Assembly (NCBI GenBank): GCA_022775905.1
Contig: JALFJX010000036.1
Coordinates: 1-64,000, forward strand
DNA: 64,000 bases
Direction of reading: 5' to 3'
Source of the DNA: Methanobrevibacter sp.
Lineage (GTDB): Archaea; Methanobacteriota; Methanobacteria; Methanobacteriales; Methanobacteriaceae
Shown in pieces: positions 6,120 to 22,473 of this stretch. Every line of letters starts with the position of its first letter. Position 1 is the stretch's first letter. The translations under genes and the position numbers were made by a program. A model generated the notes under the pieces. It worked only from the letters and a program-made list of their open reading frames with translations. It had not been told where the DNA came from and ran no database searches.

Positions 6120-6566
6120 TCATAGCAAAACATGTATGATTAATATACAAAAAGTTAAAAGATTGTACAAAAATAGGTAAGTTTTTTTGCTAAAAATTTA
6201 TGATTAAAATTTACATAATATCATACACCACAAATGCCAATCTTTTGTGAATAGTATATTGTTTTTATAAATTATTATCCTTATTTTTACCTTTTTATCA
6301 AATCTTCATCAACAATACAATCACTATTCGACAACTATCCACTATTCAGCTCACCCAGTATATACTAGATCCTGCAAAAACACTCATTTCTACCAACTTT
6401 CATCCATAACTACCTAATTTTAGCGACCCAGTTGCAATTGAATATGACCCAGATGAGCTTTCGCCAGTTATCGACAATTTTACAATAGCAAAGCAATATT
6501 GTATTATCATAAAAATTATAACCTGTTAAACACAAAAATAAATATCATATTAAAAGGTGATAAAAT
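6120..6566. other. 450-bp gap before the restriction operon
   Basis: No gene is convincing here. The stretch 6300-6480 is less AT-rich than the usual spacer and holds a short open stretch on the plus strand (about 6412-6530, containing SDPVAIEYDPDELSPVIDNF) that lacks a start codon. It could be a gene remnant or chance. The last bases hold AAAAGGTGAT (6552-6561), the ribosome binding site of the next gene. A clear TATA box for the operon was not identified. Confidence 0.35.
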
Positions 6567-6579
6567 ATGACAAACATTA

Positions 6580-8556
6580 GTGTTCATATGGAGCATTTCA
6601 GACTCAACCCTAAGAGGAGCATACAAAAGAAACGAATACCAAAAGGTAATCTTACCGTTTACCGTGCTTAAACGATTTGATAGTGTATTAGAGTATTCCA
6701 AAAAAGATGTAGTTGATACATACGAAGCTAACAAAAACAAAACAGAATTCATCGCACCCCTTCTAAATGCAAAAGCAGTTGATGAAAATGGTCGTAAACT
6801 CGGATTCTACAACTATTCCAAGTTCAACTTTGAAATATTATTACAAGATCCAGACAACATAGAAGAAAATCTAAAATTCTACATCAATAGTTTCAGTAAA
6901 AATGTTAAAGACATTCTGGACAACTTTGACATTGAAAAACAAATAGCAAAACTATCCAAAGCAAACCTACTATACTTATTGATTAAAAAATTTAACGAAA
7001 CAAGCCTTGATTTATCACCTAAAAATATATCCAACCACGATATGGGAACAATATTTGAAGAACTCATACGTAAGTTCTCTGAAACATCCAATGAAGAAGC
7101 AGGAGAGCACTTCACACCAAGAGATGTAGTTAAACTAATGACAGAGTTGTTATTTGTAGGAGAAGAAGAAAGCACAGGAACCATCAAACTGGTATACGAT
7201 CCAGCTTGTGGAACTGGAGGGATGCTCACCAGCTGCAAAGAATTCATCACCAAAACTAATCCAGACATGGATGTGGTACTGTACGGCCAAGAAATCAACG
7301 ATGAAATATACGCTATATGTAAAGCAGATATGTTAATGAAAGGAGAAGATGCAGAAAACATCAAAGGACCATCAAGCACCCTATCCAATGACCAATTAAA
7401 AGATAATAAATTTGATTATATGATTTCAAATCCACCATATGGTCGTGACTGGGAACAAGATAAAGAAGTGGTTGATGCTGAAGCAGAACTAGGATTTGAT
7501 GGAAGATTTAGGGCAGGACTGCCACGTAAATCTGATGGACAACTACTCTTTATCCAACACATGATATCAAAAATGAAGGATAATGGAAAATCAAGAATAG
7601 CAGTAATTACAAATGGGTCACCATTGTTTACAGGGGATGCAGGATCAGGCGAAAGTAACATAAGAAAATGGATATTTGAAAATGATTATCTCGAGGCACT
7701 CATCGCATTACCTGACCAACTATTTTTCAACACAGGAATTGGAACATATGTATGGGTATTGACAAATGAAAAAACATTACAAAGGGAAGGAAAAGTACAA
7801 TTAATAGATGCACGTGAAGAATTTGTTGGAATGAGAAAATCTTTAGGTAGTAAAAGACACTTAATACCAGAAAAATCTATTATTAACATTGTAAACATAT
7901 ATAAAGAATTTAATGAAAATGATAAAGTCAAAATCTTTGACAATGAAGACTTCGGATACACAAAAATAACTGTTGAAAGACCAATGCAACTAAACTACCA
8001 AGCAACTCCAGAAAGACTTGAAAACTTATATTCTTATGCTCAATTTAAAAAATTAGCTGAAAGCAAAAGTAAAGACCTTGAAACAAAAATGGCTGAGGAA
8101 GAAGAAGGTAAAAAACAACAAGAAGCAATTAAAGAAGCATTACTCACAATAGGAGATGAATTATATGCAGACTGGGATACTTTCGAAGCTAAGGTTAAAC
8201 AGGCATTAAATCAATTTAATTTTAAACCAGCATTCATCAAAAATGTAATCGAAAAACTATCAGAACATGATGACACAGCAAAATATGTAACTGATAAAAA
8301 AGGTAAACCAAAGGCAGACAGTAACCTTCGTGATACAGAAAAGATTCCATTGGTTCAAAATATTGATGATTACTTTGAAGAAGAAGTAAAAAAATATTAC
8401 TCTGATGCATGGTATGATGATAAAAAGAACAAAATTGGTTATGAAATTAATTTCACACAATATTTCTATGTATATGAACCTCCAAGACCATTGGAAGAAA
8501 TAGAATCAGATATTAACAAAGTAACTAAAGAAATACAAGATTTGCTCAAGGATTGA
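6580..8556 (+). CDS. hsdM: Type I restriction-modification DNA methylase subunit (possible 5' frameshift)
   Basis: This is the N6-adenine methyltransferase subunit of a type I restriction enzyme, using SAM to protect the host recognition site. An N-terminal HsdM_N helical domain begins FIWSISDSTLRG. It is followed by SAM motif I DPACGTGGMLTS (about residue 207) and catalytic NPPY in SNPPYGRDW (about 284). The C-terminal 170 residues are a charged coiled-coil-like extension. The start is odd. The only start in this frame is GTG at 6580, 18 bases after the ribosome binding site GGTGAT (6556-6561). An ATG at 6567 has ideal 5-base spacing but is out of frame. Dropping one base near 6580-6582 would give MTNISFIWSIS, so a one-base insertion is likely. 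hsdS follows after 4 bp. Confidence 0.93.
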   Translation: MFIWSISDSTLRGAYKRNEYQKVILPFTVLKRFDSVLEYSKKDVVDTYEANKNKTEFIAPLLNAKAVDENGRKLGFYNYSKFNFEILLQDPDNIEENLKFYINSFSKNVKDILDNFDIEKQIAKLSKANLLYLLIKKFNETSLDLSPKNISNHDMGTIFEELIRKFSETSNEEAGEHFTPRDVVKLMTELLFVGEEESTGTIKLVYDPACGTGGMLTSCKEFITKTNPDMDVVLYGQEINDEIYAICKADMLMKGEDAENIKGPSSTLSNDQLKDNKFDYMISNPPYGRDWEQDKEVVDAEAELGFDGRFRAGLPRKSDGQLLFIQHMISKMKDNGKSRIAVITNGSPLFTGDAGSGESNIRKWIFENDYLEALIALPDQLFFNTGIGTYVWVLTNEKTLQREGKVQLIDAREEFVGMRKSLGSKRHLIPEKSIINIVNIYKEFNENDKVKIFDNEDFGYTKITVERPMQLNYQATPERLENLYSYAQFKKLAESKSKDLETKMAEEEEGKKQQEAIKEALLTIGDELYADWDTFEAKVKQALNQFNFKPAFIKNVIEKLSEHDDTAKYVTDKKGKPKADSNLRDTEKIPLVQNIDDYFEEEVKKYYSDAWYDDKKNKIGYEINFTQYFYVYEPPRPLEEIESDINKVTKEIQDLLKD

Positions 8557-8560
8557 TATT

Positions 8561-9877
8561 ATGAGTTACAAAACTTATGATGAATATAAAGAATCAAAAA
8601 TGTTCTGGATTGATAAAATACCTTCTACATGGGACACTATTAAAGCTAAACATTGTTTCAATTTAAGTGGAGGATATGCATTTAAAAGTGATGATTTTAC
8701 CGAAGAGGGTATTCCTTTAGTTAGAATAGGAGATATAACTAATGGTACAATAGATTTTAACAATTGTAAAAGGTTACCCTTAGAATATGCCACCATGATG
8801 AAAGAATTTTTGGTGGAATCTGGAGACATACTAATAGCACTAACTGGAGCAACAATTGGAAAAATTGGACAGGTGCCAAAAACTAACGAAAAAATACTAT
8901 TAAATCAAAGAGTTGGAAAATTAAGTTCTGATTCATCTAATTACTATAAATATATTTTAAGTTCTGATTTGATTAAAAAACAAATAAATTTAATTGCAGA
9001 TGGTTCTGCACAAGAGAACATAAGTAATGAAGATATTGGCAATTTTGAAATATTTGACATTGATAATGGATTAAAACAACAAATAGCTAACTACTTAGAC
9101 AAAAAAACTGCTAAAATTGATGCAACTATTGCTAAAAATGAAGAACTTATCGAATTACTTGAGGAAAAAAGAGTTGCTTTAATTAATCAAGTAGTTACTA
9201 AAGGTTTAGATTCTGATGTGCCTATGAAAGATTCTGGTGTTGAATGGATTGGTGAAATTCCTGAAAACTGGGATGTTGTTTTATTCAAAAGACTTTTTAA
9301 TCTTATTAAAGATGGAACTCATGGGTCTTTTGAACGTGTAGATGATGGAGAACCTTTGCTAAGTGCTAAGAATATCTTTAATGACAAAATCAACATATCG
9401 AAAACTGAAAGTTGCATAAGTAAAGATAATTTTCTATCTATTGTTTCTAATGGATTCCCTAAAAAAGATGATTTATTAATGACAATAGTTGGAACAATAG
9501 GAAGATCATGTGTTTATGATAAAGAATTCCCCTTAGCATTTCAAAGAAGTGTGTCATTCATAAGACTTACTTATGACAATCCCTATTATTATAATTATTT
9601 TATTAAATCACAAATATTCCAATCACAATTACTTGTTAAAGCTAAACAAAGTGCACAAAAAGGAGTTTACTTAAATGATATAAAAGAATGTTTAGTGATT
9701 AGACCTCCATATGAAATTCAAATTGAAATTGCAAAGTATTTGCAAAATAGAATTACAAAAATTAATGAAACCACATCTAAAATTCAAGATAACATTAATC
9801 TTCTTGAAGAGTATAAAACTTCTTTAATTCATCATGTAGTTACTGGCAAAATTGATGTTCGAGGTGAGGAAATATGA
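8561..9877 (+). CDS. hsdS: Type I restriction-modification specificity subunit
   Basis: This 438-residue protein sets the DNA target of the HsdM/HsdR complex. It has the usual two-fold build. The first target-recognition half starts with MFWIDKIPSTWD and the second with GVEWIGEIPENWD (about residue 229). Each half is followed by a conserved coiled-coil spacer (NYLDKKTAKIDATIAKNEEL at about 182 and its counterpart KYLQNRITKINETTSKIQDN near 390). Both half-sites look full length, so a bipartite target is expected; the sequence recognised cannot be read by eye. Its last codons overlap hsdR by 4 bases (ATGA), which points to coupled translation. Confidence 0.95.
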   Translation: MSYKTYDEYKESKMFWIDKIPSTWDTIKAKHCFNLSGGYAFKSDDFTEEGIPLVRIGDITNGTIDFNNCKRLPLEYATMMKEFLVESGDILIALTGATIGKIGQVPKTNEKILLNQRVGKLSSDSSNYYKYILSSDLIKKQINLIADGSAQENISNEDIGNFEIFDIDNGLKQQIANYLDKKTAKIDATIAKNEELIELLEEKRVALINQVVTKGLDSDVPMKDSGVEWIGEIPENWDVVLFKRLFNLIKDGTHGSFERVDDGEPLLSAKNIFNDKINISKTESCISKDNFLSIVSNGFPKKDDLLMTIVGTIGRSCVYDKEFPLAFQRSVSFIRLTYDNPYYYNYFIKSQIFQSQLLVKAKQSAQKGVYLNDIKECLVIRPPYEIQIEIAKYLQNRITKINETTSKIQDNINLLEEYKTSLIHHVVTGKIDVRGEEI

Positions 9878-12750
9878 GTTCAGACACTTCTGAAAAAGGC
9901 TTCCAAAATGATATTATTGCTTATCTTACTGGCACAGGTTATGTGAAAAGAACAACTAATGATTATGATGTTACTTCTTGTTTGGATGTTGAATTGGTTT
10001 TGAATTTTATTCATGCCACTCAACCTAAGGCATGGAAGAAGTTTGCGAAGCATAATAAGTCTAATGCTGAAGTGAGATTTATCATGTCTTTGGTTAGACA
10101 GATTAAGAAGAAAGGAACTATTGCTGTTTTGAGAGAAGGATTCCGTGATATTGCTAAATTTGATTTGTTTTATCCAAGACCTAACAGCACTCTTAACCCT
10201 GAATTGAAAGCCAAATTCAATAAAAATATTTTTTCTGTTGTTGATGAGTTGGAATATCAAAACAAGGATAAAGGTAATCGTTTGGATTTGGTTATATTTA
10301 TTAATGGTATCCCCATATCAACTATTGAATTGAAAAATACTTTTACCCAAAGTGTTGACAATGCTGTTAACCAGTATAAGTTTACTCGTGACCCTCGTGA
10401 ACCCTTATTCAAGAATTGTTTAGTGCATTTTGCTATGAGCAATGAAGAAATAAAGATGACCACTAAACTTAATGGCGCTAAAACAAGATTTTTACCATTT
10501 AACAAAGGAATTGAAAACCCTGAAGTAAAAGATGATTATAATACTTCTTACTTATATACGGAAATACTTCAAAAGAACCAATTATCACGTTTGATTAATA
10601 ATTTTATATTTGAAGAAGACGAAACTGTAATCTTTCCTCGTTTCCATCAATTAGATTGTGTCAACATGCTGTTAGATAAGCCAGAACCTGGCCACAACTA
10701 TCTCATCCAGCATAGTGCGGGATCAGGTAAAACCAAAACAATTGCATGGTTAGCACATGGATTACTAAACAAATTCGATGACAACAACAAAAGGATTTAT
10801 GATATGGTTATTGTAATATCCGATCGTAAAGTTATTGATGCTCAATTACAAGACCAAGTTAAAGCTATTGAAAGAAAGCAAGGTGTTGTTGAAAAGATTG
10901 ACAAAGACTCCAAGCAGTTAGCTGAAGCTATTAAATCTGGAACTAATATTGTGGTTACTACATTACATAAGTTTTCATATATTTTGGATAAGATTGAAGA
11001 TGTTGAAGACCGCAATTATGCAATTATTGTTGATGAAGCTCATTCTTCTCAATCAGGTTCTCATGCAAAGCATTTACGTGAAGGTTTAACTAATGCTGAA
11101 GCAGACAAAGATACTTTAGATGAAGCTGAAGATGAATACGATGAAGCACTCTTAGATGAAATGGAAAAAAGAAGAAACACTCCTAACCTATCTTTCTTTG
11201 CATTCACTGCTACTCCAAAAGCTAGAACTTTGGAAATGTTTGGTGAAAAAGATGCTGAATTTGGTGATTTTAGACCTCATCATTTATACAGCATGAAACA
11301 AGCAATTAAAGAAGGTTTCATCCTTGACGTGTTGGAAAATTACTTAACGTATCCTACTTATTTCAAATTAGTGAAAACTGTTGAAGATGATCCAGAATTC
11401 GATGAGGATAAAGCAAAAAGGGTACTGCGAAGATTTGTTGAGTTGCATCCTCATGCAATTAAAGAAAAAACTGAAATAATGTTGGATCACTTTATGAACT
11501 CAACTATCCATAAAATCAAAGGTAAAGCAAAAGCTATGCTTGTTACTGGCAGTAGGAAAGAAGCGGTTTTATATAAATTGGAATTTGACAGACAAATTAA
11601 AGCCAGAAACTTGCCGATAAAAACATTGGCAGCATTCACAGGAACAATCAAACAGGACACAATAGAGTACACTGAAGCCAACATTAACGATACTAATAAA
11701 TCTGTAAAAGAAGCGTTCAAAAGTGACGAATACAAGATTCTCATTGTTGCTAACAAGTTCCAAACTGGTTTTGACCAACCGTTATTACATACAATGTATA
11801 TTAATAAGATGCTTAGAGGCGTTGCAGCAGTTCAAACATTGAGTCGTGCAAATAGAATTGCACCACACAAAGACGATACATTAATTTTGGACTTCGTTAA
11901 TGATACTGACACAATTCGTGAATCATTTGAGCCATATTATGGTCAAACATCACTTGAAAAAGAAACAGACTATCATATCCTTTATGATTTAATGGAAGAA
12001 ATTTACAAAGGAATGATATTTGACGAAGAAGAAGTTGAAGAGTTTGTAAAAGCATATCAAAAAGGTGTTCATCAATCCAAGTTACATAACCTTTTGGAAG
12101 AACCTGTCAAAAGATTTAAAAGAATATCTGATGACAAAGACAAACTCTTATTCAAAAAATTACTTAGGCGATATCAAAGTTTGTATTCTTTTATGGCTCA
12201 GTTATTGCCATTTAGTGATTTAAGCTTGGAGAAACTTTACATTTACATCAAATTCTTAAACAGATTACTGCCAGGTCAGGTGCCTGACATAATTCGAGGA
12301 TTACTTGATGATGTTGACATGGATTCCTATAAGATTGATACTCGTGACGAAGGCGGATCTATAATTCTTAATGATGGTGAAGGAGAATTAACTGGAATTA
12401 GTGGCGGAATTCCAAGTGTGTTTAATGATAAAGAAAAAACAAGATTGTCACAGATATTGGAAGCATTAAACGAAGCATTTGCTACTGACTTTACAGATGA
12501 AGACAGTTTATTCGTAACACAAATCGCTAATCACATAATGTCTGATGAGGGTTTCATAACTAAAGTAAAAAGTAATCCACGCGAAAATGTTGCAGCTATA
12601 TTCGGCAATATCTTTGAAGATGAACTTGTAACAATTTATGAAAGCAATGATACTTTTTACAACAAGATTAACAACAATCCAGAACTCAAAGAAAGATTGA
12701 AAAATGATTTGTTGGATTTTGTGTATGAAGAAACAGGTGAACAAACATGA
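9874..12750 (+). CDS. hsdR: Type I restriction endonuclease subunit R (translocase/nuclease)
   Basis: The 958-residue motor and nuclease subunit pumps DNA using ATP and cuts it when the site is unmethylated. The N-terminal PD-(D/E)xK-type nuclease shows LDLVIFINGIP then STIELKN at about residues 137-155. SF2 helicase motifs follow: Walker A SAGSGKTKT (about 282), DEAH in IIVDEAHSSQSG (about 386), TATP in FFAFTATPKA (about 446) and motif VI QTLSRANRIAPHKDD (about 655). No break is visible. The start overlaps hsdS (ATGA), and the stop overlaps the next small gene in the same way. Confidence 0.97.
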   Translation: MSSDTSEKGFQNDIIAYLTGTGYVKRTTNDYDVTSCLDVELVLNFIHATQPKAWKKFAKHNKSNAEVRFIMSLVRQIKKKGTIAVLREGFRDIAKFDLFYPRPNSTLNPELKAKFNKNIFSVVDELEYQNKDKGNRLDLVIFINGIPISTIELKNTFTQSVDNAVNQYKFTRDPREPLFKNCLVHFAMSNEEIKMTTKLNGAKTRFLPFNKGIENPEVKDDYNTSYLYTEILQKNQLSRLINNFIFEEDETVIFPRFHQLDCVNMLLDKPEPGHNYLIQHSAGSGKTKTIAWLAHGLLNKFDDNNKRIYDMVIVISDRKVIDAQLQDQVKAIERKQGVVEKIDKDSKQLAEAIKSGTNIVVTTLHKFSYILDKIEDVEDRNYAIIVDEAHSSQSGSHAKHLREGLTNAEADKDTLDEAEDEYDEALLDEMEKRRNTPNLSFFAFTATPKARTLEMFGEKDAEFGDFRPHHLYSMKQAIKEGFILDVLENYLTYPTYFKLVKTVEDDPEFDEDKAKRVLRRFVELHPHAIKEKTEIMLDHFMNSTIHKIKGKAKAMLVTGSRKEAVLYKLEFDRQIKARNLPIKTLAAFTGTIKQDTIEYTEANINDTNKSVKEAFKSDEYKILIVANKFQTGFDQPLLHTMYINKMLRGVAAVQTLSRANRIAPHKDDTLILDFVNDTDTIRESFEPYYGQTSLEKETDYHILYDLMEEIYKGMIFDEEEVEEFVKAYQKGVHQSKLHNLLEEPVKRFKRISDDKDKLLFKKLLRRYQSLYSFMAQLLPFSDLSLEKLYIYIKFLNRLLPGQVPDIIRGLLDDVDMDSYKIDTRDEGGSIILNDGEGELTGISGGIPSVFNDKEKTRLSQILEALNEAFATDFTDEDSLFVTQIANHIMSDEGFITKVKSNPRENVAAIFGNIFEDELVTIYESNDTFYNKINNNPELKERLKNDLLDFVYEETGEQT

Positions 12751-13265
12751 ATGGTGCGGTTTTGATGGATTTAGATTATGAAAAGGAAAGATTATTGGGT
12801 CTGATTGAAGTATATAATCTGTATGATGAAGATGAAATTAATATTAGTTTGTCTAATTTTGATTTGAATATTGAAGAAGTAGGTAATACTGATAAGCATA
12901 ATCTTACAATTATTTGTGATGTCAATGCTAATTCTGATAATTTTAAAAAATATGATAAATCTAATTCAGAAATTTGTTTAAATTACACATTTAACGATGA
13001 AGAATTCTCTACCATTCATATGGATAGTACTAGTTTTTATTTTGATAGTGGACTGTTTGAACCTGAATTTACTGGCCATAAAACAGTCAAATATACAGTT
13101 TACGATATAAATTTAGATAAAATTGAAGAAATCATTATTGATATCGAAGCATTTTTATATGAAAAAGAAGATGACAACGGCGAAGGAATAGAAATTGTCA
13201 TTGAATTTGACCAGGAGAAGTTTGAAAATGAGTTACGCAAGTTTGGATTTACAAAACACGATTGA
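12747..13265 (+). CDS. Unrecognised acidic protein between hsdR and the DUF4011 helicase gene
   Basis: I do not recognise this 172-residue protein. It is strongly acidic, with no Cys cluster, no signal peptide and no membrane segment. It looks beta-rich in the middle (ICLNYTFNDEEFSTIHMDST) with an acidic helix at the end. Its ATG overlaps the hsdR stop by 4 bases, and its 3' end overlaps the next gene by 38 bases, so it is locked into the operon. A second Met six codons in (at 12765) is an alternative start. The tight coupling suggests it is a working part of the defence system, for example a regulator, DNA mimic or subunit of the helicase protein; that is inference only. Confidence 0.75.
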   Translation: MNGAVLMDLDYEKERLLGLIEVYNLYDEDEINISLSNFDLNIEEVGNTDKHNLTIICDVNANSDNFKKYDKSNSEICLNYTFNDEEFSTIHMDSTSFYFDSGLFEPEFTGHKTVKYTVYDINLDKIEEIIIDIEAFLYEKEDDNGEGIEIVIEFDQEKFENELRKFGFTKHD

Positions 13266-16200
13266 AGGTTTAAGAGATAGTCTTTTGGATATGAGTTTGA
13301 GAAATAACTTGTTGAATTTTAGACCTAGGAAAAAGAATATTGAAATCGTTGATGAAGACATTGCTTCTTTGTACAATATTCTTGTTGTTAACGAACAAAA
13401 GATGAAATTCCTATCTAACGAGACGCTTGATGAAGATGCATTGTTAGATAATACTTGGGATTCCAATGCTGAATTAAAAGATACTCATGTAGATAAATTT
13501 CTCCAAACAAAATATGATGAAAACGAATTACAAAAAAAATTAACCCATCTTTACCGTGACAATAAAACAGTTCTTGAAGAACAAGGTTACAATGATTTCT
13601 ATTTGGCATTAGGTTTCTTGGAATGGAAAGAAATTGACTATGAAGAGGGTATTCATAAAGCTCCATTGGTTTTAGTTCCAATGACTATTGAAAGAACTTC
13701 CATTTCAAAACCATTTACTGTTAATTGGAATGGGGATGAGGTAAGGTCTAATTTATCATTGATATACAAGCTTCAAGAGCAAGGTGTTGAAATACCTGAT
13801 TTTGAGGAATTTGAATCAGAACAAGATTTGATAACTTATTTTAAAGAGATAGAGTCCATTATAGCCAATAAACCTGGTTGGAAAATATCTAAAGATATTT
13901 TTTTATCTAGTTTTAATTTTAAAAAGTTTGTAATGTTTAAAGACTTGAATTTAGACAATTGGGCAGGAATAGAGAATCATCCGATTAAAAGTTTATTTTA
14001 TGTTGATGAACATAATTTTGATTCAGATAATGAATTGGATTTAAATTCGATGAGTTCAACTGAAATATATAATGTTGTGGATGCTGATTCGTCTCAGCTT
14101 GCCGTTTTGGAAGAGGCAAAAAAAGGTAAAAATCTTGTTGTAGAGGGGCCTCCTGGAACTGGTAAATCTCAAACTATTGTTAATTTGATTGCAGAATTAA
14201 TGGCAAGAGGACAAACAGTATTATTTGTAAGTGAAAAGAAAGCAGCATTAGATGTTGTAAAAACAAGATTAGATAGTGTTGGCTTAGGTGAAGGATGCTT
14301 AGAACTTCATGGTAAAAATTCCAACAAAAAAGAGTTCTTAAATGAAATAGAACGTACCTTGAAGATTGATGCTGTAGAACTTTCAGATGAAAGTGATTTC
14401 AGACATTTAGATGAAATAAAAGATGATTTAGACGAATATGTTGACAAATTGCATACCATATATGAGGATACTGAGTTGACTCCATTTCAGTTAATTGGAA
14501 TATATGAATATCGCAGTCAAGAATTAATTAATAATGACCAAGAGATACTGAAATTAGATATTGACGATGTTTCACAGTTAGATAAAGAAAAAAGAGGAGA
14601 GATAGTTAGAAAATTGGATGAAATCGTCAAATATTATGATTTGATATCACCTGTTTCAGATAATGTATGGAGAAATACTTCACCTGATAATTTAAGTTCA
14701 CCAGAGGTCAAAGAATTAGCTGAAAAGTTAGAAGAATTATCCAATATATTAACCCAATTTGATGAATTGGATACAAACATTCATGAATTAATTGGTGTTG
14801 ATAAAATAAATAATCTAAATATCGAACCTTTAATATCCAACTCGAAAATACTTCGACCAAATTTAAAATTGCTAAGAGATAGTGACGATTTAGAAAAACT
14901 AATTAATGACATAGCCACATTCCAAGATAAAATTGGCAATACTGATTTGGATGTAATGGATTTAGATTTAGATGAAATGAAAAATGAAATTGACACATTA
15001 TTAGGGAATATTGATGGCTTAAACATCAACATGGAAATCGTAGATAAAGAAGATTTCAAAACAATAAGTGATGATTTCAAATCAAACAAAAACATCATTG
15101 AGGAATCCAATTTAGAACAAGCCCTTACAAATCCAAATCTTGAAGCAGAATTCAATGAATTCAAAACTAAAAGGAACTCTTTCTTCAAACGATTAATTGA
15201 CGGCAATTACAAAAGAATCAAAAACAACTTTAAAAGTTATTACACCACAGATGTAAGTGATGATCAAATTGAAAGTGATTTTGAAAAAGTTATCACTGCC
15301 AATAATGATTTAACTAAACTAAGAAACAAGATATCAGCATATTCCAAATCAGAAACTAACAATGATGATAAAATTGTTGTAGAATCTGAAAAGCTATTGT
15401 CATGGGTTTCTGAATTAGACAGAATCAAATCCAATTTATCTTCATATCAGATTTCAGTACAAAATAACACAATTAAAGAGAAAGTCAACAACCTCATTGA
15501 ACTAAAAGCACTACTGCAAGAAATTGAAAGTATGGACGATATTGGTGCATACTACTTCAATGATGATTGGAAATCTCATAAGTCTAATGTCCGAAAACTC
15601 AAAGAACAATTAAACAATATTCAAGAATTCAAAAAACAATATGATTCCAACTATTTTAATGACACAACAATAGAATTCATTGAATCCAATCAATTTGACA
15701 TATTAGATTCATATTTAAATGAACTTTCTGATGTTAAAACTAAAATCCAAAAGCAATATAATGACATTAACAGTAAATTACATTTTAAAAATGAACTTGC
15801 TGTAACTAGCATGGATGTTGCAGATGTCCCTGAAATGAAAAGCAATACTGATATGCTATTGGAACATATTGAAAACTTAAATGACTATAGGTTATTTACT
15901 AAGTATTGTAATGAATATGCTGATAAATACGCAAAACAATTAATCGAATACATCAAAGCAGATAAGATAAAATCAAATATGGTAACTAGTTTATTTTACT
16001 ACAATTTCTCCAATATTGCTTTAAAAGATATATTCACCAATGATTCTGTATTGGATGAATTTAATTCCAGATTACATGAGGAAAAATTATCCAAATTCAA
16101 GAAATTAGATAAAAACATAATTGAATCCAATAAATATAGGGTTCGTGAAGTTTTAGGTAGGAACAGACCGAACATGTCAATTGCTGCAGGACCAACATCT

Positions 16201-18528
16201 AGTTTAGGCATATTAAAAAGAGAAATGGGTAAAAAAAGAAAAATCAAACCAATCAGAAGAATTTTAACAGAAACAAGCGACATCATCTCGTATATAAAAC
16301 CTTGCTTTATGATGTCTCCACTGTCAATTGCACAATACTTAGATCCTAAAATATATGAATCTTACTTTGATTATGTTATTTTTGACGAAGCAAGTCAAGT
16401 AAAAATTGAAGATTCAATAGGTGCTATGCTAAGAGGTAACAGATATATCGTTATGGGAGACACAAAGCAATTGCCTCCAACAACATTCTTTGAAAAAGAA
16501 TTAGACATTGATGAAGACGATGATGAAGAAAGCTTAACAGAAAACATTGAAAGTATTTTACACTTATGTAAAAACACATTTGAAACAAAAATGCTTAAAT
16601 GGCACTACAGAAGTCGCCATGAGTCATTAATATCTGTTTCCAATCAAGAATTCTATAACAATGAGTTATATGTTTTCCCTTCACCTACAAAAGAATCAGA
16701 AGACCTTGGACTTAAATTTGTATATGATCCAACAACAGTCTATGACAGAGGCGGCGGAACAAACAACATTAAAGAAGCAGAAAATGTTGTAGAATATGCA
16801 TTTGATTGCTTTAGAAAATGGGGAAACTCCAGAAGTTTAGGTATCGGAACATTCAACCTAAAACAAAGAAATACCATAATGGACATATTAGAAAAGAAAC
16901 TAAAAGACCATCCTGACTTAGAACACTTCTTCAATGAAGATGGTGAAGACGGTTTCTTTGTTAAAAACCTTGAAAACATACAAGGAGACGAAAGAGACAT
17001 CATATTAATAAGTGTGGGTTATGGTATCGACCAAAATAATAGACTATCATTAAGCTTTGGACCTTTAAATAAAGAAGGTGGTGAAAGAAGACTAAATGTA
17101 TTGATTACAAGAGCTAAAAAACAATGCGTTGTATTTTGTAACTTCAAATCTTCATTAATGCACACAACTGAAAAAACACCAAGAGGTGTAGAAGCACTCA
17201 AAACTTTCCTATACTATGCTGAAAATGGAGAATTCCCAGAAAACTACCATACAGGAGATGATTTCGACTCACCATTTGAAGAAGCAGTATACAACTTCTT
17301 AACTGATGAAGGATACACTGTTGAAAAGCAAGTCGGATGTGCAGGATACAAAATAGACCTGGCCATTGTTGATAAAGATGACTCAAACAGATATATCCTA
17401 GGAATTGAATGTGATGGTGCAACCTACCATTCATCACCATTAGCAAGAGACAGGGACAGGCTAAGACAAGAAGTTCTTGAAGGTCTAGGATGGAAATTCC
17501 ATAGGATATGGTCTACCGATTGGTATCATGTCAATCAAACTGCAAAAGAAAGATTGCTAAATGCAGTAGAAGATGCAATGAAAAATAAAGATAACAAAAT
17601 GATTGCTGAAAAGTTTGAAAGCAATTACAAACCAAATGTTGTTGTTAAAACACAAGAAGACAAAAAACAAGAAGAATTAGACAAGTATTTTGAGGAATAT
17701 GAAAACTATTATGCGTATAGTCCTTATCCTTTAACAAATGTTGTTGGATTGGTAGAAACTGAAGGCCCTATCCATAAAGAGGATATTTATGACTTTATGA
17801 AAGTTGAAATGAATAGAAAAGCAACTAAAAGTTTTAAAACCGAAATCGATGGATATTTACTAAATGCAATCAGAAGTAATTTAATTGAACGAGACTATGA
17901 GTTTTATATGCCAAATAATTTCGATTTTGATGGAATGAAAGTTAGAAGGAGAGATTCTCCTAAAATTGATCGCATTCATCCAAAAGAAATTGAAAAATCA
18001 ATTATTTACACATTAAAACTGCAATATTCCTCTTCTGAAGTTGATTTAATCAAATCTGCTTCAACATATTTAGGTTTTAAATCTCTACGAGCAAATGTCA
18101 AAGAAAAATTTGAAATTGCAATTCAAGATTTACTTTTCGATAAAACGATTAAAGAAACAAATGGAACTATTGAATTAAATCAAGGAAATGCTAAAGAACG
18201 ACCCACAGATTTAATAGAAAATGTTGACAATACTATAACTCAGAAGAAACCTTATAAACACTCAATAAATTTAACAGAAGATATTGATAATACTATAACT
18301 AGGGAAAAAACTTACGAACACTCAACAAGTTTAACAGATAGTAGGACTGAGAAAAAGACGAATAATAACATGACATTTACTCCTGCAGAAATTAGAAAAA
18401 GATATGAAAATATAAATCTTCAATTAATAAATGAAGGTAAAATTGCAGGTGTAGAAGAAATAATGGATCGTGTTGGAGTAAAATATCGCATCATTGAAAA
18501 AAATAGGTTGTATGAAATTTTTGAGTAA
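13228..18528 (+). CDS. DUF4011 / SF1 helicase / Vsr-like nuclease / DUF3320 defence protein
   Basis: This is a giant 1766-residue protein. I chose ATG 13228, which follows GGAGAAG, over an upstream in-frame start lacking a good site. Domains in order: DUF4011-like N-terminus (LRDSLLDMSLRNNLLNF at about residue 14); SF1 Walker A GPPGTGKSQ (about 306); a long helical insertion (about 420-950); Walker B VIFDEASQ (about 1050) with GDTKQLPP; motif VI VLITRAKKQC (about 1293). A Vsr/MTES_1575-like nuclease follows at about 1345-1450 (KIDLAIV, then IECDGATYHS). A DUF3320-like domain (YSPYPLTNVVGLVETEGP) is near 1497. A Thr-rich repeat tail and a terminal domain end it. Such proteins occur in defence islands, to my recollection reported under the name Hhe. 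It probably unwinds and cleaves foreign DNA. Confidence 0.9.
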   Translation: MSYASLDLQNTIEGLRDSLLDMSLRNNLLNFRPRKKNIEIVDEDIASLYNILVVNEQKMKFLSNETLDEDALLDNTWDSNAELKDTHVDKFLQTKYDENELQKKLTHLYRDNKTVLEEQGYNDFYLALGFLEWKEIDYEEGIHKAPLVLVPMTIERTSISKPFTVNWNGDEVRSNLSLIYKLQEQGVEIPDFEEFESEQDLITYFKEIESIIANKPGWKISKDIFLSSFNFKKFVMFKDLNLDNWAGIENHPIKSLFYVDEHNFDSDNELDLNSMSSTEIYNVVDADSSQLAVLEEAKKGKNLVVEGPPGTGKSQTIVNLIAELMARGQTVLFVSEKKAALDVVKTRLDSVGLGEGCLELHGKNSNKKEFLNEIERTLKIDAVELSDESDFRHLDEIKDDLDEYVDKLHTIYEDTELTPFQLIGIYEYRSQELINNDQEILKLDIDDVSQLDKEKRGEIVRKLDEIVKYYDLISPVSDNVWRNTSPDNLSSPEVKELAEKLEELSNILTQFDELDTNIHELIGVDKINNLNIEPLISNSKILRPNLKLLRDSDDLEKLINDIATFQDKIGNTDLDVMDLDLDEMKNEIDTLLGNIDGLNINMEIVDKEDFKTISDDFKSNKNIIEESNLEQALTNPNLEAEFNEFKTKRNSFFKRLIDGNYKRIKNNFKSYYTTDVSDDQIESDFEKVITANNDLTKLRNKISAYSKSETNNDDKIVVESEKLLSWVSELDRIKSNLSSYQISVQNNTIKEKVNNLIELKALLQEIESMDDIGAYYFNDDWKSHKSNVRKLKEQLNNIQEFKKQYDSNYFNDTTIEFIESNQFDILDSYLNELSDVKTKIQKQYNDINSKLHFKNELAVTSMDVADVPEMKSNTDMLLEHIENLNDYRLFTKYCNEYADKYAKQLIEYIKADKIKSNMVTSLFYYNFSNIALKDIFTNDSVLDEFNSRLHEEKLSKFKKLDKNIIESNKYRVREVLGRNRPNMSIAAGPTSSLGILKREMGKKRKIKPIRRILTETSDIISYIKPCFMMSPLSIAQYLDPKIYESYFDYVIFDEASQVKIEDSIGAMLRGNRYIVMGDTKQLPPTTFFEKELDIDEDDDEESLTENIESILHLCKNTFETKMLKWHYRSRHESLISVSNQEFYNNELYVFPSPTKESEDLGLKFVYDPTTVYDRGGGTNNIKEAENVVEYAFDCFRKWGNSRSLGIGTFNLKQRNTIMDILEKKLKDHPDLEHFFNEDGEDGFFVKNLENIQGDERDIILISVGYGIDQNNRLSLSFGPLNKEGGERRLNVLITRAKKQCVVFCNFKSSLMHTTEKTPRGVEALKTFLYYAENGEFPENYHTGDDFDSPFEEAVYNFLTDEGYTVEKQVGCAGYKIDLAIVDKDDSNRYILGIECDGATYHSSPLARDRDRLRQEVLEGLGWKFHRIWSTDWYHVNQTAKERLLNAVEDAMKNKDNKMIAEKFESNYKPNVVVKTQEDKKQEELDKYFEEYENYYAYSPYPLTNVVGLVETEGPIHKEDIYDFMKVEMNRKATKSFKTEIDGYLLNAIRSNLIERDYEFYMPNNFDFDGMKVRRRDSPKIDRIHPKEIEKSIIYTLKLQYSSSEVDLIKSASTYLGFKSLRANVKEKFEIAIQDLLFDKTIKETNGTIELNQGNAKERPTDLIENVDNTITQKKPYKHSINLTEDIDNTITREKTYEHSTSLTDSRTEKKTNNNMTFTPAEIRKRYENINLQLINEGKIAGVEEIMDRVGVKYRIIEKNRLYEIFE
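18211..18345 (+). repeat. 60-bp in-frame tandem repeat in the helicase C-terminal tail
   Basis: Two copies of a 60-bp unit (18211-18270 and 18271-18330) plus the first bases of a third. Each encodes 20 residues with the shared core DNTIT followed by (K/T)Y(K/E)HS. The repeat lies in a linker between the DUF3320-like region and the last C-terminal segment. Being a multiple of three it can vary in copy number without breaking the frame. Confidence 0.75.
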
Positions 18529-19956: not shown

Positions 19957-20550
19957 TTATTTAGATTTATCAACATACCAATGTCCCGCATTAGGATAAT
20001 CCACAGCATTCGGAACATTTGGATAATATTTCTTACTTGGACCTAAATTTTTTATAAAATTACCATTTCCATCAATAAGAGCATAATATCCATCTTCACC
20101 CATTACAACTTGAGTATTTGAAGTTGTACTTGAACTGGCAGGTTCGGCTTTGACAACTTCTTCTTTAATTGTTAATTTCTGTGTTGTGTTGTTGCCAGTG
20201 TAGTTTTCATTTCCACCATAAGTAACAGTAACATTATATTTGCCTTTTTTCAAATCAAGATCCAATTTTGCCTTACCCTTGGAATTAGTTTTTACAACAT
20301 CATCAACAACAACTTTACCTTTGCTGTTGGTTATTGTAATGTTAACTACTTCTTTTGATAGTGGAGTCTTATTCAAATCTGTTAATGTTATTGACAATTC
20401 TCCACCTTCGTATTGTTCCTTATCACTTGTAATTTTAATTTTTGTAGGTTCCTTTGCATGCATCGGATTAAACATGGCAAATCCTATTGCAGCTGCAAGA
20501 ATAACAATTATTACAATTAGTATTATAATTATGTTTTTGTTTTCCATCAT
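19957..20550 (-). CDS. Membrane-anchored Ig-like surface protein, type 1 copy
   Basis: This protein of about 197 residues has one N-terminal transmembrane helix after MENKN. One Ig-like domain follows (KITSDKEQYEGGELSITLTD to about residue 128, with VKTNSKGKAKLDLDLKKGKY). A Ser/Thr linker and a short C-terminal segment end it. It is nearly the same in its Ig part as the gene at 21223-21807 (TVTYGGNENYTGNNTTQKL occurs in both, with NVTYGG in the other), but its last 50 residues differ. The ATG follows GAGGTGATATG. It is probably exposed on the cell surface; the ligand is unknown. Confidence 0.8.
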   Translation of the reverse strand: MMENKNIIIILIVIIVILAAAIGFAMFNPMHAKEPTKIKITSDKEQYEGGELSITLTDLNKTPLSKEVVNITITNSKGKVVVDDVVKTNSKGKAKLDLDLKKGKYNVTVTYGGNENYTGNNTTQKLTIKEEVVKAEPASSSTTSNTQVVMGEDGYYALIDGNGNFIKNLGPSKKYYPNVPNAVDYPNAGHWYVDKSK

Positions 20551-20556
20551 ATCACC

Positions 20557-21180
20557 TCATGTATGGTATGTTCCGGTATTTGAATCACGGGCTGTGTACC
20601 CTCCAACTGTCACATACTCTCCAGGCCTGTCACCGTCTACTGTAATTTCAAGATAATGCATATCATTTGCAATTGCATACTCCTTGGTTATGCCTTGAGC
20701 ATCAACTTCAGGCCCATATTCCGGATATATTCCACCATCAGGAGCATATTTGCTTGCATGAGTTGTGGTTGATGTTTGATCATTACTAACTAATTCAGTA
20801 GTTGCCTTTTTAACGGTGATATTGTCAGCAATGGAGACCTGTGCATATTTATCATTTCCCTCAAATTTACATTCAGCAGAATAGTTGCCCTTTTCTTCCA
20901 TCTTGAATTTTGCTTTTCCTTTGGAGTTGGTTGTTATTTTCTCATCAATTGTTATTCCGTCATTATCAGTGAGTTTAATGCTTATAGTTTCATTTTCGAT
21001 TGGATTTCCGTGACTGTCAGTCAACACAACCACCAATGAATCGCCGACATTGATTTTTTTATCGGCAATTTTTAAATTTGACTTTTCTTTTGCTATTTGC
21101 TGAGAAAACATCACACCTACAGCTGCAGCAAGAATAACAATTATCACAATCAGTATTATGATTATATTTTTGTTTTCCAT
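20557..21180 (-). CDS. Membrane-anchored Ig-like surface protein, type 2 copy
   Basis: This 207-residue protein starts MENKNIIIILIVIIVILAAA, then has one Ig-like domain (INVGDSLVVVLTDSHGNPIE and TTNSKGKAKFKMEEKGNY). After a linker comes a distinct C-terminal module with YPEYGPEVDAQGITKEYAIA and an ending TGTYHT. The same module closes the gene at 21823-22431, so these two are one subtype. It lies 6 bp upstream of the type 1 gene in the reading direction, as the first member of the second gene pair. Confidence 0.8.
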   Translation of the reverse strand: MENKNIIIILIVIIVILAAAVGVMFSQQIAKEKSNLKIADKKINVGDSLVVVLTDSHGNPIENETISIKLTDNDGITIDEKITTNSKGKAKFKMEEKGNYSAECKFEGNDKYAQVSIADNITVKKATTELVSNDQTSTTTHASKYAPDGGIYPEYGPEVDAQGITKEYAIANDMHYLEITVDGDRPGEYVTVGGYTARDSNTGTYHT

Positions 21181-21222
21181 AAGAATACCTCAGATATACT
21201 TAATTTTAAATTAAAAATTTGT

Positions 21223-21807
21223 TTAATAACCTCCACCCTCTTCAATAAAATTACCGCTTGGGGTCCAAACGCCTTTTCTACCACCTTTATAACCTTCTAT
21301 AACACCACTATCCTCATCAACACTTTCAACTACAACGCTTTCACCAGATCCTCCACTTAAATCTCTGCCATTGTATTCTGTCGAAGAGGAACTGGATTGT
21401 ATACTAACTGTCTGTTTAATTTCCTCTTTAATAGTTAACTTTTGTGTTGTGTTATTTCCAGTATAATTTTCATTTCCACCATAAGTCACATTTACAGTAT
21501 AGTTACCTTTCTTTAAATCCAAATCCAATTTAGCTTTACCCTTGGAATTAGTTTTAATTGTTTCATTGATTACAACTTTACCTTTTTTATTTGTAATTGT
21601 GATGTTTACTTTTTCTTTTGAAATTGCAGTTTTATTCAAATCTGTTAATTGTATTGTTACTTTGCCACCTTCATATTGTGACTTATCACTTGTTATTTTA
21701 ACTTTAGTCGGCTCTTTAGCAGCAGGTTGCATAAACATTACACCCGCAACAACCGCTAAAACCACTATTATTGCTATTAAAATTATGATTATGTTTTTGT
21801 TTTCCAT
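21223..21807 (-). CDS. Membrane-anchored Ig-like surface protein, type 1 copy
   Basis: This 194-residue protein has an N-terminal transmembrane helix and one Ig-like domain (KITSDKSQYEGGKVTIQLTD to NYTGNNTTQKLTIKEE). The C-terminal tail is Gly/Ser-rich and ends SGNFIEEGGGY. The Ig part is almost identical to that of 19957-20550, showing a recent duplication, while the tails have diverged. I place the start at ATG 21807 (MENKN), matching its paralogues, rather than the GTG four codons upstream. Confidence 0.8.
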   Translation of the reverse strand: MENKNIIIILIAIIVVLAVVAGVMFMQPAAKEPTKVKITSDKSQYEGGKVTIQLTDLNKTAISKEKVNITITNKKGKVVINETIKTNSKGKAKLDLDLKKGNYTVNVTYGGNENYTGNNTTQKLTIKEEIKQTVSIQSSSSSTEYNGRDLSGGSGESVVVESVDEDSGVIEGYKGGRKGVWTPSGNFIEEGGGY

Positions 21808-21822
21808 TTTAACGACCACTCA

Positions 21823-22431
21823 TTAAGTATGATAACATCCGGCATTTGAATCATAAGGAACATACAATCCTGCATTTTGTCCATCAATTGTTTGAGGAAT
21901 ATAATGCCAGTTATTTGCTATTGCATCTTCACGGGTAGTGCCCAATGAATCGACTGCCGGCCCATACTCCGGATAATATGAATATCCATCTTCGCTTAAA
22001 CCTGATACTGAATCAAAATTACTAGTTTTCTTTTCACTAACAGTTTTGGTTGATACCTTTTTAACTTTAATATTATCTGAAAGAGAACTAGCAGCATATT
22101 TGCCTTCACCATCAAATGTGCATTCAACAGAGTATTTTCCTTTTTCTTCAACTTTTAATTTAGCTTTTCCTTTATCATTAGTTGTAACATCCTCCTCAAT
22201 TGTAATTCCATCTTCATCAGTGAGTTTTATATTGATTGTTGCATCGGGCAATCCAATACCATGAGTATCTGTTAATACAACAACTAACTTACCCCCTTCA
22301 TCAATTGTTTTATCTACAATTGCTAATTTGGATTCTTCTTTAAATGTGGGAAGTGCAAACATTGCAACACAAATGATGAGGATTACGATAATCACAGATA
22401 ATACAACAATTATACTTTTTTGTTTATTCAT
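21823..22431 (-). CDS. Membrane-anchored Ig-like surface protein, type 2 copy
   Basis: This 202-residue protein begins MNKQKSIIVVLSVIIVILII with one membrane helix, followed by an Ig-like domain (DEGGKLVVVLTDTHGIGLPD, TTNDKGKAKLKVEEKGKYS). Its C-terminal module (YPEYGPAVDSLGTTREDAIA, ending GCYHT) is shared with the gene at 20557-21180. ATG 22431 follows GGAG at a normal distance, whereas the in-frame Met 13 codons upstream has no such site. It is the promoter-proximal gene of the cluster. Confidence 0.8.
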   Translation of the reverse strand: MNKQKSIIVVLSVIIVILIICVAMFALPTFKEESKLAIVDKTIDEGGKLVVVLTDTHGIGLPDATINIKLTDEDGITIEEDVTTNDKGKAKLKVEEKGKYSVECTFDGEGKYAASSLSDNIKVKKVSTKTVSEKKTSNFDSVSGLSEDGYSYYPEYGPAVDSLGTTREDAIANNWHYIPQTIDGQNAGLYVPYDSNAGCYHT

Positions 22432-22473
22432 AATAGTCTCCAAATAATAAATATTAAATGAACAAATCACATT

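What the first reader, a model, noticed from the sequence alone, without database searches (positions are those of the whole stretch)
6567..18528. Five-gene defence operon joining a type I restriction system to a DUF4011 helicase-nuclease
hsdM, hsdS, hsdR, a 172-residue unknown and a 1766-residue DUF4011/SF1 helicase/Vsr-like nuclease/DUF3320 protein run in one direction with spacings of 4 bp or overlaps of 4, 4 and 38 bases. Seen: the coupling and the domain motifs. Known: type I restriction enzymes and, separately, DUF4011-helicase-nuclease proteins occur in defence islands. Inference: they act as one combined system, with the helicase protein possibly handling modified or cut DNA that escapes HsdR.
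Basis: partly seen in the sequence, partly recalled or inferred. Interest (0 to 1): 0.8.

Follow-up and report, generated by a model that had tools for sequence, protein, structure and literature searches.

The report
Restriction operon carrying a helicase-nuclease cargo
In a methane-producing archaeon, a standard type I restriction system carries, behind its cutting subunit, a second anti-phage helicase-nuclease gene; relatives carry quite different genes in that same place, so the pair looks like two defences travelling together rather than one new machine.

Summary
hsdM, hsdS, hsdR, a 172-aa gene and a 1766-aa DUF4011/SF1-helicase/Vsr-like-nuclease gene are tightly packed on one strand (6567-18528). 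The hsdM frame does not start at ATG 6567: an 11-bp deletion just after that ATG, seen against relatives, puts it out of frame; the first in-frame start is GTG 6580.

The interpretation as one combined system is only weakly supported. The same five genes occur in one other genome (Methanobrevibacter sp. RUG593), and there hsdR, orf172 and the DUF4011 gene were shared as a block. Eight other related hsdR genes in the family have other genes behind them: a Mrr nuclease, an AlbA_2 protein, a DEAD-HNH helicase, a nuclease-like protein and small unknowns. Twenty Bacillota relatives have no DUF4011 there. The nearest outside DUF4011 relative (74%) stands alone, and no other DUF4011 locus inspected has hsdMSR.

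Best reading: a mobile type I restriction cassette with an exchangeable 3' cargo slot, here filled by PADLOC's known single-gene candidate PDC-S37 plus a small acidic partner. Embedded defences in type I operons are known (TgvAB, DarTG2). The new part is this combination and the cargo slot in Methanobacteriaceae.

The parts
6502..6566 (+). leader upstream of hsdM, conserved between related cassettes; AGGTGA ribosome-binding site at 6555-6560
   Evidence: DNA similarity to G040, G044, G168 and G059 starts at 6502-6512 and not further upstream
6567..6582 (+). ancestral ATG start of hsdM, now out of frame through an 11-bp deletion after 6582
   Evidence: alignment with G040, G044 and G168 leaders and starts
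6580..8556 (+). hsdM, N6-adenine methyltransferase subunit, 658 aa from GTG
   Evidence: PF02384 224.7 bits, PADLOC MTase_I 860 bits; 89% to G040
8561..9877 (+). hsdS, specificity subunit, two target-recognition halves
   Evidence: PF01420 two stretches, PADLOC Specificity_I 345 bits; 38-42% to G040, dN/dS 0.63
9874..12750 (+). hsdR, PD-(D/E)XK nuclease and SF2 translocase, 958 aa
   Evidence: HSDR_N, SWI2_SNF2, T1R_D3-like; matches EcoR124I HsdR structures
12747..13265 (+). orf172, small acidic protein (pI 4.2), no known family
   Evidence: no match in Pfam, PADLOC or NCBIfam; only in G000 and G040 among the relatives searched; purifying selection
13228..18528 (+). DUF4011 / SF1 helicase / Vsr-like nuclease protein, 1766 aa, PDC-S37 type
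   Evidence: PADLOC PDC-S37 1465 bits, ProA model 1255, Hhe model 933
13282..13773 (+). DUF4011 domain (residues 19-182)
   Evidence: PF13195 143 bits
14146..14169 (+). Walker A motif GPPGTGKS of the SF1 helicase (residues 307-314)
17275..17565 (+). Vsr-like REase_MTES_1575 nuclease domain (residues 1350-1446) with ECDGATYHS
   Evidence: PF18741 130.8 bits; motif
18184..18525 (+). 114-residue C-terminal tail found only in this genome
   Evidence: similarity to G040 stops at 18183; no homologue in 120 relatives

Best explanation
This is a horizontally moving type I restriction-modification cassette (hsdMSR) with an exchangeable cargo position behind hsdR. Here the cargo is a second, in principle independent anti-phage module: a PDC-S37-type DUF4011/SF1-helicase/Vsr-like-nuclease protein with a small acidic partner or regulator (orf172). 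HsdM2S methylates host DNA and HsdR2M2S cuts unmethylated invading DNA. The DUF4011 protein would unwind and nick or cut invader DNA by its own recognition, for example modified or replicating DNA that type I restriction misses. Shared transcription gives co-inheritance and joint expression; no physical complex is needed. Shown: the gene order, intact motifs, block transfer between two species, cargo switching in relatives and stand-alone relatives of the DUF4011 gene. Inferred: one transcript, anti-phage activity, complementary targets and the role of orf172.
For: hsdR relatives at 52-77% identity in the family have other genes right behind hsdR: a 197-aa Cys-rich protein (G168), a 182-aa TM-ribbon protein (G059), an AlbA_2 plus TM-ribbon pair (G191), a DEAD-HNH helicase plus a 177-aa protein (G182), a Mrr/PDC-S02 nuclease plus a 190-aa protein (G172), an HSDR_N-like nuclease (G129). 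Similarity to G168 and G044 ends at the hsdR 3' end. The HsdR tree shows cargo changing from branch to branch, and the DUF4011 tree puts the window and G040 copies beside the stand-alone G185 copy. None of 20 Bacillota hsdR neighbourhoods holds a DUF4011 gene. The cassette lies in unrelated surroundings in window and G040, and the window flanks are housekeeping genes. Papers report separate defences inside type I operons: TgvAB, PMC11411939; DarTG2, PMC12255303.
Against: The two genomes with this cargo exchanged hsdR, orf172 and DUF4011 as one block, as expected also if the three proteins cooperate. Only two examples of this exact combination were found, so independence is inferred from relatives. 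In TgvAB, protection against several phages was 10-100 fold stronger with the whole type I cluster (PMC11411939), so embedded systems may cooperate in part.
Confidence: 0.66

Rival explanations
1. One combined system: HsdR, orf172 and the DUF4011 helicase-nuclease act in one pathway, with the helicase processing DNA that HsdMSR has marked, stalled on or cut. orf172 would be the adaptor linking them.
For: Overlapping genes; block exchange of hsdR-orf172-DUF4011 with low divergence (dS 0.49, 0.11, 0.37 against 0.87 for hsdM); orf172 is found only in this arrangement.
Against: Close hsdMSR relatives lack the DUF4011 gene and carry other cargo. The 74% DUF4011 relative has no hsdMSR or orf172 next to it. 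No DUF4011 gene beside hsdMSR was found in any other locus inspected.
Confidence: 0.17
2. orf172 plus DUF4011 form a two-gene module, orf172 being a dedicated inhibitor, immunity protein or sensor of the DUF4011 nuclease, possibly acting as an acidic DNA mimic, placed behind hsdR by chance of insertion.
For: orf172 is acidic (19 D and 23 E against 12 K and 2 R; pI 4.2), overlaps the DUF4011 gene by 38 bases, and is under purifying selection.
Against: The closest stand-alone DUF4011 gene (G185) has no orf172 homologue upstream, and no relative was found in plasmids, phages or viral contigs. The fold prediction was unusable (pLDDT 37). This can be true together with the best explanation.
Confidence: 0.12
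3. The type I part is crippled in this genome and only the cargo is maintained: the 11-bp deletion removes the normal hsdM start, so methylation and restriction are weak or off.
For: Out-of-frame ATG with a good ribosome-binding site; in-frame GTG 6580 lies about 20 bases from it and the product lacks about nine N-terminal residues.
Against: The rest of hsdM, hsdS and hsdR is open with intact motifs. The deletion could be an assembly error or be tolerated through GTG initiation.
Confidence: 0.15

Closest known systems
Type I restriction-modification system (HsdMSR, EcoR124I-like HsdR)
   Same: three subunits in one operon, intact catalytic motifs, hsdS diverging fastest
   Different: HsdR and HsdM score below the NCBIfam cut-offs (TIGR00348, TIGR00497); extra cargo genes follow hsdR
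PADLOC PDC-S37 (single-gene putative defence candidate)
   Same: DUF4011 protein matches it with 1465 bits
   Different: extra 114-residue tail and an upstream orf172; sits at the 3' end of a type I operon
Hhe and ProA anti-phage proteins (NCBIfam NF042953, NF058533)
   Same: DUF4011-helicase-nuclease architecture; 933 and 1255 bits
   Different: below the curated cut-offs of 2000 and 1500; ProA model residues 1-356 not covered
TgvAB embedded in the VPI-2 type I operon; DarTG2 embedded in the EPEC type I operon
   Same: a second defence placed in a type I operon (PMC11411939, PMC12255303)
   Different: those sit between type I genes; here the cargo is behind hsdR and is a DUF4011 protein

Membership tests
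Type I restriction-modification system | N6-adenine methyltransferase HsdM with DPACGTGG/NPPY motifs | tested here: met
   PF02384, motifs at residues 207 and 284; start codon damaged
Type I restriction-modification system | HsdS with two target-recognition domains | tested here: met
   PF01420 two stretches
Type I restriction-modification system | HsdR with PD-(D/E)XK nuclease and SF2 translocase | tested here: met
   HSDR_N, SWI2_SNF2; motifs; below the TIGR00348 cut-off
Type I restriction-modification system | methylation and restriction activity | not testable with these tools
   needs methylome or transformation data
PDC-S37 (PADLOC) | strong match to the PDC-S37 profile | tested here: met
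   1465 bits; the PADLOC search gives no curated cut-off
Hhe | NCBIfam NF042953 above its cut-off of 2000 bits | tested here: not met
   933.1 bits
ProA | NCBIfam NF058533 above its cut-off of 1500 bits | tested here: not met
   1255.3 bits, model residues 357-1902
MADS (methylation-associated defence system) | MAD2 and MAD5 above their cut-offs | tested here: not met
   54.7 of 720 and 76.3 of 400 bits
single combined hsdMSR-DUF4011 system | DUF4011 gene travels with hsdMSR across relatives | tested here: not met
   2 linked cases (G000, G040); none in the other loci inspected

The most novel reading that the evidence does not exclude
hsdR, orf172 and the DUF4011 protein form a functional unit in which a type I translocase hands DNA to a second helicase-nuclease through a small acidic adaptor, and the other cargos behind hsdR are alternative effectors plugged into the same type I sensor.
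Probability: 0.12. Interest if true: 0.8.

Novelty: new variant of a known kind. Interest (0 to 1): 0.4.

Why it matters
It adds an archaeal case to the growing evidence that restriction operons serve as carriers for further defence genes, and it points to a concrete discovery handle: the position behind hsdR in Methanobacteriaceae type I cassettes, where at least six different candidate cargos were seen. If the cargos prove to depend on the type I complex, type I systems would be modular sensors with swappable effectors.

Tried and rejected
Structure prediction of orf172 from the single sequence: pLDDT 37, not usable, so no fold search was run. A sequence hit of orf172 to a designed TIM barrel covers 46 residues and was disregarded as a composition match. 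Distant relatives of orf172 in plasmids, phages and viral contigs: none. I suspected that L055 and L056 were hsdM-hsdS-DUF4011 operons because of gene sizes; Pfam showed PP2C phosphatase and protein kinase instead. A leader motif upstream of hsdM, thought to resemble the leader of the stand-alone G185 DUF4011 gene, has no second good match in the genome. The bacterial promoter/terminator scan gave no more than chance and does not suit archaea. No held paper names PDC-S37, and the primary guilt-by-embedding preprint is not held, so what it says of PDC-S37 was not read.

Full report
What is there. Profile searches identify HsdM (PF02384, HsdM_N), HsdS (two Methylase_S stretches), HsdR (HSDR_N, SWI2_SNF2, T1R_D3-like), a 172-aa protein without any family, and a 1766-aa protein with DUF4011, split SF1 helicase motifs and the Vsr-like REase_MTES_1575 nuclease domain. 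Motifs for catalysis are intact. The genome is 1.83 Mb in 37 contigs. The relative G040 is Methanobrevibacter sp. RUG593 of the same genus.

Correction to hsdM. ATG 6567 follows a good ribosome-binding site but is out of frame. G040, G168 and G044 share the same start region with small differences; G040 reads ATGACAAACATTAGTGAAATATCAGGTTTCATATGG, while the window has ATGACAAACATTAGTGTTCATATGG, 11 bases shorter. The open frame can start only at GTG 6580 or later. This may weaken or silence the type I enzyme in this strain, or be an assembly error; I cannot tell which.

Relatives with the same order. Among 100 relatives only G000 and G040 have orf172 (95% identity), and G040 has all five genes in the same order. 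Protein identities to the window are HsdM 89, HsdS 38, HsdR 97, orf172 95 and DUF4011 95%. DNA identity is about 84% through hsdM, falls in hsdS, and is about 92% from 9781 to 18183. The thermosome gene, a core gene, is 83% identical between the two genomes. So hsdR-orf172-DUF4011 was shared more recently than the rest, and as a block. Outside the cassette the 64-kb window has no long match to the G040 contig stretch examined: the cassette sits at a different place in each genome. The window flanks are housekeeping genes (thermosome, HMG-CoA reductase, CoA ligase), not a defence island. The last 114 residues of the window's DUF4011 protein begin where similarity to G040 ends and have no homologue in 120 relatives, so the 3' end has been rearranged.

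Is the association general? A family-wide search for the HsdR (139 genomes) gave 11 genomes with strong relatives, the window's own included. In those at 52-77% identity the gene or genes behind hsdR differ: a 197-aa Cys-rich protein (G168), a 182-aa TM-ribbon protein (G059), an AlbA_2 protein with a TM-ribbon protein (G191), a DEAD-HNH helicase with a 177-aa protein (G182), a Mrr nuclease of PADLOC type PDC-S02 with a 190-aa protein (G172), an HSDR_N-like nuclease protein (G129), a 105-aa ORF (G173) and a DUF1802-like fragment behind a decayed hsdR (G044) (families). Similarity to G168 and G044 ends at the hsdR end. In 20 Bacillota loci with related HsdR no DUF4011 gene lies beside hsdR. Conversely, the closest outside relative of the DUF4011 protein, 74% identical in G185, has no hsd gene and no orf172 next to it, and that genome's own hsdMSR lies on another contig. 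Other DUF4011 loci from the family and from Bacillota show no hsdMSR within the stretches fetched; one (L118) has a weak, short HsdR-like match only. Thirteen annotated plasmid neighbourhoods show none. Limits: neighbourhoods were cut at contig ends in several genomes, and only blastp similarity to the window's subunits and to a few divergent ones was used.

Trees. HsdR of window and G040 pair together, then with G168 and G044, then G059, so the cargo changes at nearly every step. The DUF4011 tree pairs window and G040, then G185, then G172 and G029, none of the latter with hsd genes beside them. The simplest history is one capture of orf172-DUF4011 behind hsdR in the ancestor of the G000/G040 cassette; this is inference.

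orf172. It is acidic (pI 4.2) and shows 9 synonymous and 10 non-synonymous differences to G040 over 92 and 424 sites, p about 0.003, so it is a selected gene. No family, no relative in plasmids, phages or viral contigs, and no usable model. A role as inhibitor or adaptor is a guess from acidity and gene overlap.

Compared with what is known. The restriction part is a type I system by content. The DUF4011 protein fits PDC-S37 of PADLOC and falls below the curated cut-offs of Hhe and ProA. A 2026 survey describes single-gene PDCs as candidates found by 'guilt by embedding' (PMC12988326). Further defences inside type I operons are documented: TgvAB in Vibrio VPI-2 (PMC11411939), DarTG2 in EPEC (PMC12255303). 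TgvAB worked without the type I genes but 10-100 fold less well against several phages, which keeps partial cooperation open here.

Verdict. The operon is real and the block has moved as a unit, but the evidence favours a type I cassette with exchangeable cargo over a single combined machine. Step status: gene content, order, block transfer and cargo switching are shown by sequence; co-transcription, activity, targets and independence are inferred.

Noticed in passing
L053 10635-17915 (G000:C21 55634-62914): A second, larger DUF4011 protein (2426 aa) next to pdxT; large DUF4011 proteins occur in nearly all genomes searched of the genus, so this copy may be a core gene rather than a mobile defence gene.
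   Followed up: partly
L055 4966-13885 and L056 5744-13858: Gut bacteria carry a PP2C phosphatase, a protein kinase and a DUF4011 helicase-nuclease in a row, with a VWA protein in L055; a rumen plasmid (L079) has DUF4011 with kinases, FHA and phosphatase genes.
   Followed up: partly
L078 11992-20272 and L193 3710-13118: DUF4011/Hhe genes on Vibrio and Klebsiella plasmids lie beside a pair of DUF262 (GmrSD-like) genes.
   Followed up: no
L035 19377-20000: In G040 a 208-aa gene with a weak GIY-YIG match follows the DUF4011 gene by about 20 bp; the window has an in-frame tail there instead.
   Followed up: partly
window 19957-22470: Four consecutive minus-strand genes of 197-215 aa; some have weak matches to pilin-like N-termini and Ig-like domains, as if small secreted proteins.
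   Followed up: no
L070 411-6559: In G044 the related hsdM and hsdR are broken by stops or frameshifts, a decayed copy of the same cassette.
   Followed up: no
L159 5043-6059, L165 11301-12200: Bacillota type I operons with an extra 338-aa or 299-aa gene between hsdS and hsdR; the L159 one may be an embedded gene, the L165 one may be the split N-terminal part of hsdR.
   Followed up: no
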